The notes under the pieces are model-generated. The model saw only the letters and a program-made list of their open reading frames with translations, ran no database searches and was not told where the DNA came from. Of a stretch of DNA of 45,020 nt, positions 39,059-39,252 are shown one piece after another. This DNA comes from Candidatus Saccharimonadota bacterium (GTDB lineage Bacteria > Patescibacteriota > Saccharimonadia > Saccharimonadales > JAICHO01): the NCBI GenBank assembly GCA_025924835.1, contig JAICHO010000004.1, forward strand, positions 1 through 45,020, read 5' to 3'. Within the stretch, counting starts at the first letter, position 1. Each line of letters starts with the position of its first letter. The position numbers were made by a program, and so were the translations under genes.

Positions 39059-39087
39059 TTGACAACAAAAAAGCCATGGGTTATAAA
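39059..39087 (+). promoter_or_regulatory. promoter of the 72-aa gene leader
   Basis: TTGACA (39059-39064)-N17-TATAAA (39082-39087). Confidence 0.75.
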
Positions 39088-39094
39088 CATGATT

Positions 39095-39169
39095 GTGAAT
39101 AGTTTCAACTTTCTGAAGCAGCTTCTTCTCAGCCTATACGGGCTGTGCTTCAGCATAGTTGAAGCCTAG
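39095..39169 (+). CDS. putative Leu-rich leader peptide (24 aa from GTG; 26 aa if ATG 39089 is used)
   Basis: (M/V)NSFNFLKQLLLSLYGLCFSIVEA*; stop codon overlaps attenuator segment 2. Confidence 0.5.
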   Translation: MNSFNFLKQLLLSLYGLCFSIVEA

Positions 39170-39230
39170 CCCCGATTTATCGGGGCCCAGCACAGTCCGT
39201 CAATCAGGCTTCAACAGGGTCTGATTTTTT
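39104..39230 (+). promoter_or_regulatory. attenuator upstream of the 72-aa gene
   Basis: 1:2 TTCAAC (39104-39109)/GTTGAA (39158-39163) plus CTGAAGC (39113-39119)/GCTTCAG (39147-39153); 2:3 GTTGAAGCCT (39158-39167)/AGGCTTCAAC (39206-39215), perfect 10 bp; 3:4 terminator AATCAGGCTT-caaca-GGGTCTGATT (39202-39226) + T-tract. Confidence 0.75.
39202..39230 (+). terminator. intrinsic terminator (attenuator) before the 72-aa gene
   Basis: AATCAGGCTT caaca GGGTCTGATT TTTT (three G-U pairs). Confidence 0.7.
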
Positions 39231-39252
39231 AATTTAATCTAGGAAACTAATT

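What the first reader, a model, noticed from the sequence alone, without database searches (positions are those of the whole stretch)
39059..39250. Leu-rich mini-ORF and antiterminator/terminator switch upstream of a 72-aa protein
A near-consensus promoter (TTGACA-N17-TATAAA) is followed by a mini-ORF (..NSFNFLKQLLLSLYGLCFSIVEA*). It contains CTT CTT CTC AGC CTA, and its TAG overlaps segment 2. Perfect 10-bp pairing GTTGAAGCCT/AGGCTTCAAC competes with a 10-bp terminator stem followed by T's. A long 1:2 hairpin (TTCAAC..CTGAAGC / GCTTCAG..GTTGAA) completes the attenuator. A separate GCCCCGA-ttta-TCGGGGC hairpin (39169-39186) sits inside the 2:3 loop. The Leu codon cluster suggests leucine sensing (inference).
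Basis: partly seen in the sequence, partly recalled or inferred. Interest (0 to 1): 0.82.

Follow-up and report, generated by a model that had tools for sequence, protein, structure and literature searches.

The report
Leucine-starvation RNA switch in Saccharibacteria
A short stretch of RNA in a tiny bacterium (Candidatus Saccharibacteria) appears to sense leucine shortage by letting a ribosome stall on leucine codons, and the same RNA scaffold, with its codons swapped to match the gene it controls, recurs across this bacterial order but is absent from the RNA-family database.

Summary
Window 39059-39250 holds a promoter, a 24-codon Leu-rich leader ORF, a perfect antiterminator pairing and a competing intrinsic terminator. 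It is one member of a conserved RNA family found in 84-92 of 396 sampled genomes of the same order (Saccharimonadales), with nothing convincing elsewhere in the phylum and no Rfam match.

At this locus the switch controls a 72-aa protein of a new small-protein family, in a genome lacking LeuA, IlvB and IlvD, i.e. a probable leucine auxotroph. Small proteins behind Leu-type leaders are poor in Leu, those behind Ile-type leaders poor in Ile.

Kind: ribosome-mediated transcription attenuation, new variant. Nothing has been tested experimentally.

The parts
39059..39087 (+). Sigma-70-type promoter TTGACA-N17-TATAAA
   Evidence: Sequence. In the family the -10 box ends 6-10 nt before an in-frame leader start in 43 of 81 members against 2.7 in shuffles.
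39095..39169 (+). Leader ORF, start GTG at predicted +1 (leaderless), (M)NSFNFLKQLLLSLYGLCFSIVEA*
   Evidence: Sequence; homologous leaders open in the same frame in about 80 members; Shine-Dalgarno motif upstream in 0 of 81. Start position inferred from promoter spacing.
39122..39136 (+). Control-codon box CTT CTT CTC AGC CTA (Leu)
   Evidence: Box is Leu before leuA-family genes in 17/17 and Ile/Val-rich before ilvA/ilvB in 14/14.
39102..39135 (+). Segment 1, pairs with 39140-39165 (anti-antiterminator when no ribosome is on segment 1)
   Evidence: MFE fold; complementarity of the corresponding region above shuffles in the family: mean 6.47 vs 4.76 nt, 59 of 83 with at least 6.
39138..39149 (+). 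A: 5' arm of helix A:A' (ACGGGCTGTGCT)
   Evidence: 94.8% of cells paired with A', compensatory changes in 8 of 10 pairs.
39158..39167 (+). B: 5' arm of antiterminator helix B:B' (GTTGAAGCCT), overlaps the stop codon
   Evidence: 90.8% of cells paired, compensatory changes in 8 of 10 pairs, although B:B' was not part of the search model.
39169..39186 (+). Inner hairpin GCCCCGA-TTTA-TCGGGGC between B and A'
   Evidence: MFE fold; sequence and size variable in relatives.
39189..39200 (+). A': 3' arm of helix A:A' (AGCACAGTCCGT)
39206..39215 (+). B': 3' arm of antiterminator (AGGCTTCAAC), shared with the terminator 5' arm
39202..39230 (+). Intrinsic terminator (stem 39202-39226, T run to 39230)
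   Evidence: all 10 stem pairs show compensatory changes in the family.
39253..39471 (+). Regulated gene: 72-aa protein, with Shine-Dalgarno-like AGGAAA at 39241-39246
   Evidence: Four homologues at 68-75% identity; shares a [YF][AD]GTE motif and an AN[ML]-like C-terminus with small ORFs behind other members. Function unknown.
38862..39049 (-). Divergent attenuator-like leader on the other strand: promoter 39049-39021, leader ORF 39017-38943 (MRDKNAPNRLYASPKPQVGFCDDY*), B 38938-38928 / B' 38888-38878, terminator 38893-38863, before the 139-aa minus-strand ORF
   Evidence: Weak match to the family model, E about 1e-5 (L029 1240-1363 minus); fold z = -6.7. Sensed residue unclear.
39503..39606 (+). 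Tandem ilv-type leader MTRNIILVVITTPRGARF* (39503-39559) with terminator 39579-39604, before 105-aa ORF, RidA and IlvA
   Evidence: Sequence, fold z = -2.7; not matched by the family model.

Best explanation
A ribosome-mediated transcription attenuator responding to charged leucyl-tRNA. The transcript starts at or next to the leader start codon, and a ribosome starts on it without a Shine-Dalgarno. With leucine plentiful the ribosome reaches the stop codon at 39167 and covers segment B; B' then pairs downstream to form the terminator and the 72-aa gene is not transcribed. With leucine short, the ribosome stalls in the CTT CTT CTC box; its front edge lies just before segment A and it holds segment 1 open, so A pairs with A' and B pairs with B'. 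The two crossing helices form a pseudoknot that locks up B' before the terminator's 3' arm is made, and polymerase reads through. Without translation, segment 1 sequesters A and B and transcription stops. Shown by comparison: conserved leader, terminator, both helices, codon-box specificity of the family. Inferred: order of events, simultaneous formation of both helices, the physiological trigger, and the role of the 72-aa protein as a leucine-starvation protein in an auxotroph.
For: Family in 92/396 (R1, E<=1e-3) and 84/396 (R2, E<=1e-4) same-order genomes. Covariation: 57 double-changed cells vs 11.3 in shuffles, 0/500 shuffles as high; slid controls 27-44% paired vs 92.8%; terminator 10/10 pairs. 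Codon box matches downstream enzyme, 17/17 vs 14/14, U = 0, p = 8e-7, over 15 and 10 genera. An Ile box (LAIIMAIQ) sits directly before a threonine deaminase in L042. Leaderless geometry 43/81 vs 2.7. Energetics: A:A' about -21, B:B' about -19, terminator about -12 kcal/mol medians; loops of 8 and 11 nt. Ribosome-blocking folds: 1:2 present in free RNA, lost with a ribosome on the first three codons of the Leu box; terminator 0.91 with a ribosome at the stop. Cargo poor in the sensed residue, genus-averaged p = 0.0025.
Against: No expression data. At this locus the gene is of unknown function and the genome lacks LeuA, IlvD and IlvB families (genome 95% complete), so the leucine link rests on relatives. 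The folding software is pseudoknot-free and predicts the terminator in every full-length state at equilibrium, so antitermination depends on a pseudoknot and on kinetics that were not simulated. Alignment A3 was fitted to A:A' and the terminator. Related sequences inflate counts. Segment 1 is only loosely conserved.
Confidence: 0.83

Rival explanations
1. Same leucine attenuator, but the antiterminator is B:B' alone; A:A' is a separate helix (for example a pause helix) and does not coexist with B:B' as a pseudoknot.
For: B:B' alone already excludes the terminator. Nested folds show A:A' and B:B' in different states.
Against: A:A' is as conserved and covarying as B:B', loop lengths (8 nt; median 11 nt) allow both at once, and A:A' formation would break the A-B hairpin that hides B.
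Confidence: 0.25
2. An arrest-peptide switch: the conserved peptide end GLCFSMVEA stalls its own ribosome on a small molecule or another signal, rather than Leu codons being read slowly.
For: The C-terminal residues are strongly conserved.
Against: 28 amino-acid-changing substitutions in the A and B codons are matched by compensating changes on the noncoding arm; in L066, L068 and L092 the peptide end is altered while pairing stays. The box that varies is the one that tracks the pathway.
Confidence: 0.06
3. A protein-binding element or metabolite riboswitch in which the small ORF is incidental.
For: Unusually conserved primary sequence and a pseudoknot, features that prompted a protein-binding proposal for the actinobacterial LEU element (PMC1262725).
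Against: Open frame, start at +1, stop placement after B and the box/enzyme match all point to translation. No Rfam riboswitch or T-box match even at E up to 10.
Confidence: 0.05
4. At this locus the element is a relic: the leucine genes were lost and the attenuator now idles before an unimportant ORF.
For: No leucine pathway found in the genome.
Against: Promoter, leader, both helices and terminator are intact here; the downstream protein is conserved in homologues and is Leu-poor as at other Leu-type loci.
Confidence: 0.1

Closest known systems
Ribosome-mediated transcription attenuators of amino-acid operons (trp, his, leu, ilv leaders of proteobacteria)
   Same: Leader peptide with control codons, alternative antiterminator and intrinsic terminator, stop codon next to the antiterminator arm, control codons match the pathway.
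   Different: Antiterminator consists of two crossing helices; nearly fixed primary sequence over an order; leader lacks a Shine-Dalgarno; in many genomes the output is a small protein of unknown function rather than a biosynthetic enzyme.
Actinobacterial LEU element upstream of leuA (Seliverstov et al. 2005, PMC1262725)
   Same: Leader ORF with a run of Leu codons, conserved pseudoknot, leuA-family gene downstream (in 17 relatives here).
   Different: LEU elements have no terminator described and are proposed to pair the Leu run with the leuA Shine-Dalgarno; here there is an intrinsic terminator and the box is exchangeable (Leu or Ile/Val). Model R1 found nothing in 61 genomes around an actinobacterial centre, though no positive control was available.
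Leaderless attenuator ORFs: trpL of Sinorhizobium meliloti (PMC7298713), ilvBNC leader of Corynebacterium glutamicum (PMC11857589)
   Same: Transcript begins at the leader start codon (stated for trpL; the ilvBNC paper discusses leaderless initiation); attenuation by leader translation.
   Different: Other residues sensed; a find for 'pseudoknot' in the ilvBNC paper gave nothing. Sequences were not compared.

Membership tests
Ribosome-mediated transcription attenuator (functional class) | Short leader ORF with clustered control codons | tested here: met
Ribosome-mediated transcription attenuator (functional class) | Intrinsic terminator between leader and gene | tested here: met
Ribosome-mediated transcription attenuator (functional class) | Antiterminator mutually exclusive with terminator, supported by covariation | tested here: met
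   B:B' 90.8% paired, 8 of 10 pairs with compensatory change
Ribosome-mediated transcription attenuator (functional class) | 1:2 anti-antiterminator | tested here: inconclusive
   Strong in the window; complementarity above shuffles in the family but position variable
Ribosome-mediated transcription attenuator (functional class) | Control codons match the regulated pathway | tested here: met
   Met across the family; at this locus the gene is of unknown function
Ribosome-mediated transcription attenuator (functional class) | Readthrough rises when the amino acid is scarce | not testable with these tools
   Needs an experiment
Actinobacterial LEU element | Leu-run leader ORF plus conserved pseudoknot | tested here: met
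Actinobacterial LEU element | Leu run pairs with the gene's Shine-Dalgarno, without a terminator | tested here: not met
   Terminator present; Leu run CTTCTTCTC does not complement AGGAAA at 39241
Actinobacterial LEU element | Shared sequence family | tested here: inconclusive
   No R1 match in 61 genomes around an actinobacterial centre, no positive control
Rfam Leu_leader and other Rfam cis-regulatory families | Match to the covariance model | tested here: not met
   None over 39059-39250 at gathering or E up to 10; none over the element in 16 relatives

The most novel reading that the evidence does not exclude
A single RNA scaffold in Saccharibacteria serves as an exchangeable amino-acid starvation sensor: its codon box is swapped to suit the cargo, and in auxotrophic lineages it sits before fast-evolving small proteins whose composition avoids the very residue being sensed, i.e. 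a starvation-response protein family that can still be made when that residue has run out.
Probability: 0.45. Interest if true: 0.85.

Novelty: new variant of a known kind. Interest (0 to 1): 0.74.

Why it matters
In the library searched I found no account of leader-peptide attenuation in Saccharibacteria or other Patescibacteria, and these reduced organisms are usually seen as having little amino-acid control (own knowledge). A family of about 90 members in which the control codons change with the downstream enzyme is a natural mutagenesis experiment for codon-specific attenuation. It also flags a set of uncharacterised small proteins likely made when branched-chain amino acids run out, which could be tested as part of how these host-dependent bacteria respond to a starving host.

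Tried and rejected
Rfam at gathering and at E up to 10: nothing over the element. ARAGORN: no tRNA or tmRNA there. Pfam on the 72-aa and 105-aa proteins: none. AlphaFold of the 72-aa protein with 12 homologues: mean pLDDT 61, pTM 0.28, so no fold search was made. R1 over genomes around an actinobacterial centre to test kinship with the LEU element: no match, inconclusive. R1 matches outside the order had E above 1e-4; none was found with R2 at E <= 1e-4 in a phylum sample, so I treat them as chance. Pseudoknot-free partition-function folding cannot represent A:A' plus B:B' together; its equilibrium preference for the terminator in all full-length states is therefore not taken as evidence on the switch. 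A first NCBIfam call failed on coordinates and was repeated. The arrest-peptide reading was rejected on compensated amino-acid changes.

Full report
OBSERVATION. The RNA folds far better than shuffles (z = -5.4). The window is from a 1.0-Mb genome in 51 contigs; named genomes carrying the element are mostly Candidatus Saccharibacteria or Saccharimonadales.

FAMILY. A BLASTN search of 60 same-order relatives hit the element, not its flanks, in 16 of them, at 72-90% identity within 39114-39255. A covariance model from 17 sequences (R1) matched 92 of 396 same-order genomes at E <= 1e-3, own included, about 85 of the matches strong; a second model from 91 sequences (R2) matched 84 of 396 at E <= 1e-4. 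In a sample of 389 genomes of the phylum R2 matched only members of the same order. E-values are rough because calibration was shortened. No Rfam family covers it.

STRUCTURE. On 80 distinct sequences two helices stand out: A:A' (window 39140-39149/39189-39198, extendable to 12 bp) and B:B' (39158-39167/39206-39215). They are 94.8% and 90.8% paired, with compensatory changes at 8 of 10 pairs each; 57 double-changed cells against 11.3 in shuffles, 0 of 500 shuffles as high; slid versions pair in 27-44% of cells. The terminator stem has compensatory changes at all 10 pairs. The order A-B-A'-B' makes A:A' and B:B' cross, so together they are a pseudoknot. The loop between A and B is most often 8 nt and that between A' and B' has a median of 11 nt; stacking energies are about -21 and -19 kcal/mol against about -12 for the terminator. 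A short hairpin joining the ends of A and B (GCTTCA/TGAAGC) is also conserved (97.9% paired); since it uses the 3' end of A and most of B, forming A:A' should release B. An upstream segment complementary to the A-B region is present in the window and above chance in the family.

LEADER PEPTIDE. Leaders read ...[LLLL or VIII]xL.GLCFSMVEA(...)*, in frame in about 80 members, with the stop at or shortly after B. In 43 of 81 a start codon lies 6-10 nt after the -10 box, against 2.7 expected from dinucleotide shuffles (maximum 8 in 60 runs), and none has a Shine-Dalgarno motif. So the leader is most likely translated from a leaderless transcript; in the window this points to GTG 39095, 7 nt after TATAAA. 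Leaderless leader ORFs are known elsewhere (PMC7298713; discussed in PMC11857589). The end of the peptide seems conserved because of the RNA: 28 amino-acid-changing substitutions in the A and B codons are matched by changes on the noncoding arm.

WHAT IS SENSED. The box just upstream of A is Leu in all 17 leaders before leuA-family genes (Ile+Val count 0-1) and Ile/Val-rich in the 14 leaders before ilvA or ilvB whose box could be read (2-5; one further weak ilvA-associated leader, L088, was not scored); the two sets do not overlap (U = 0, p = 8e-7) and cover 15 and 10 genera. Gene identities: L031 and L058 exceed NCBIfam cut-offs for 2-isopropylmalate synthase and acetolactate synthase; other leuA-family members such as L026 fall below the equivalog cut-offs; L042 matches threonine deaminase over its catalytic part only. 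L042 is telling: box LAIIMAIQ directly before that gene. The window's leader is of the Leu type.

THIS LOCUS. The gene behind the window's element encodes 72 aa with four close homologues and belongs to a divergent group with a [YF][AD]GTE motif and an AN[ML]-like C-terminus; a looser form of the motif (Y[ASD]G[TED]) occurs in 13 of 57 small first ORFs behind the family and 0 of 138 control proteins (the window's F variant is additional). The genome has no match to PF00682, PF00920 or PF02776, all of which ring in the 14 control genomes, so it probably cannot make leucine. Hence the switch is probably a starvation sensor with a non-biosynthetic output. Consistent with this, small proteins behind Leu-type leaders contain 3.7% Leu and 6.3% Ile, those behind Ile-type leaders 6.3% Leu and 3.5% Ile; proteins further downstream do not differ (9.8/5.1 vs 9.6/5.3). 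Leu and Ile are the two most different residues of 20; the Leu-minus-Ile difference has permutation p = 5e-5, genus-averaged p = 0.0025, and holds within the largest family (p = 0.003). The small ORFs were called by my own rule and the test is not fully corrected for ancestry.

MECHANISM. With a ribosome held on the Leu codons at 39122-39130 its front edge falls near 39139, just before A, and segment 1 is blocked: in constrained folds the 1:2 hairpin disappears and A:A' dominates; with a ribosome at the stop codon B is covered and the terminator forms. Those folds exclude pseudoknots and describe equilibrium, so the step from A:A' to B:B' and readthrough is inferred from conservation and energies, not shown.

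COMPARISON. It works like a classical amino-acid attenuator. The nearest published relative in kind that I found is the actinobacterial LEU element, which combines a Leu-run leader with a conserved pseudoknot before leuA but has no terminator and pairs its Leu run with the Shine-Dalgarno (PMC1262725). A defining feature of that element is not met here and kinship could not be tested properly, so I do not file it there. I rate it a new variant of a known kind.

Noticed in passing
window 39503-39606 (+): A second leader, MTRNIILVVITTPRGARF*, with its own terminator, lies between the 72-aa gene and the 105-aa/RidA/IlvA genes: an ilv-type attenuator in tandem with the Leu-type one. The R1 model does not match it.
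   Followed up: partly
window 38862-39049 (-): A divergent leader (MRDKNAPNRLYASPKPQVGFCDDY*) with the same B/B'/terminator layout precedes the 139-aa minus-strand ORF, back to back with the Leu attenuator. The residue it would sense is unclear.
   Followed up: partly
window 39253-39471 and small ORFs in L021, L022, L025, L068, L078, L100: A divergent small-protein family with a [YF][AD]GTE motif and an AN[ML]P-like C-terminus recurs behind the attenuator, often upstream of rplJ-rplL. No Pfam match for the window's member; structure prediction uninformative.
   Followed up: partly
window 40310-41809: Full-length biosynthetic-type threonine deaminase (IlvA) in a genome without detectable IlvB or IlvD, so its 2-oxobutyrate cannot go on to isoleucine by the usual route.
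   Followed up: partly
window 36092-38443: Fusion of thymidylate kinase and ThyX (Thy1) domains in one 783-aa protein; a ThyX-like ORF recurs upstream of the attenuator in many relatives.
   Followed up: no
window 41860-41999: Rfam L10 leader (RF00557) before rplJ.
   Followed up: no
L012 and L023 (genome G032, two contigs): Two near-identical copies of the attenuator; in L012 the Leu run is disrupted and the downstream small ORF is cut short.
   Followed up: no
L013 1037-1157: Member whose leader frame ends right after the Leu box (LLLSL*), owing to an extra base.
   Followed up: no
L042 1210-2502: Threonine deaminase variant with a roughly 110-residue N-terminal extension and no match to the C-terminal regulatory part of the IlvA models.
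   Followed up: no
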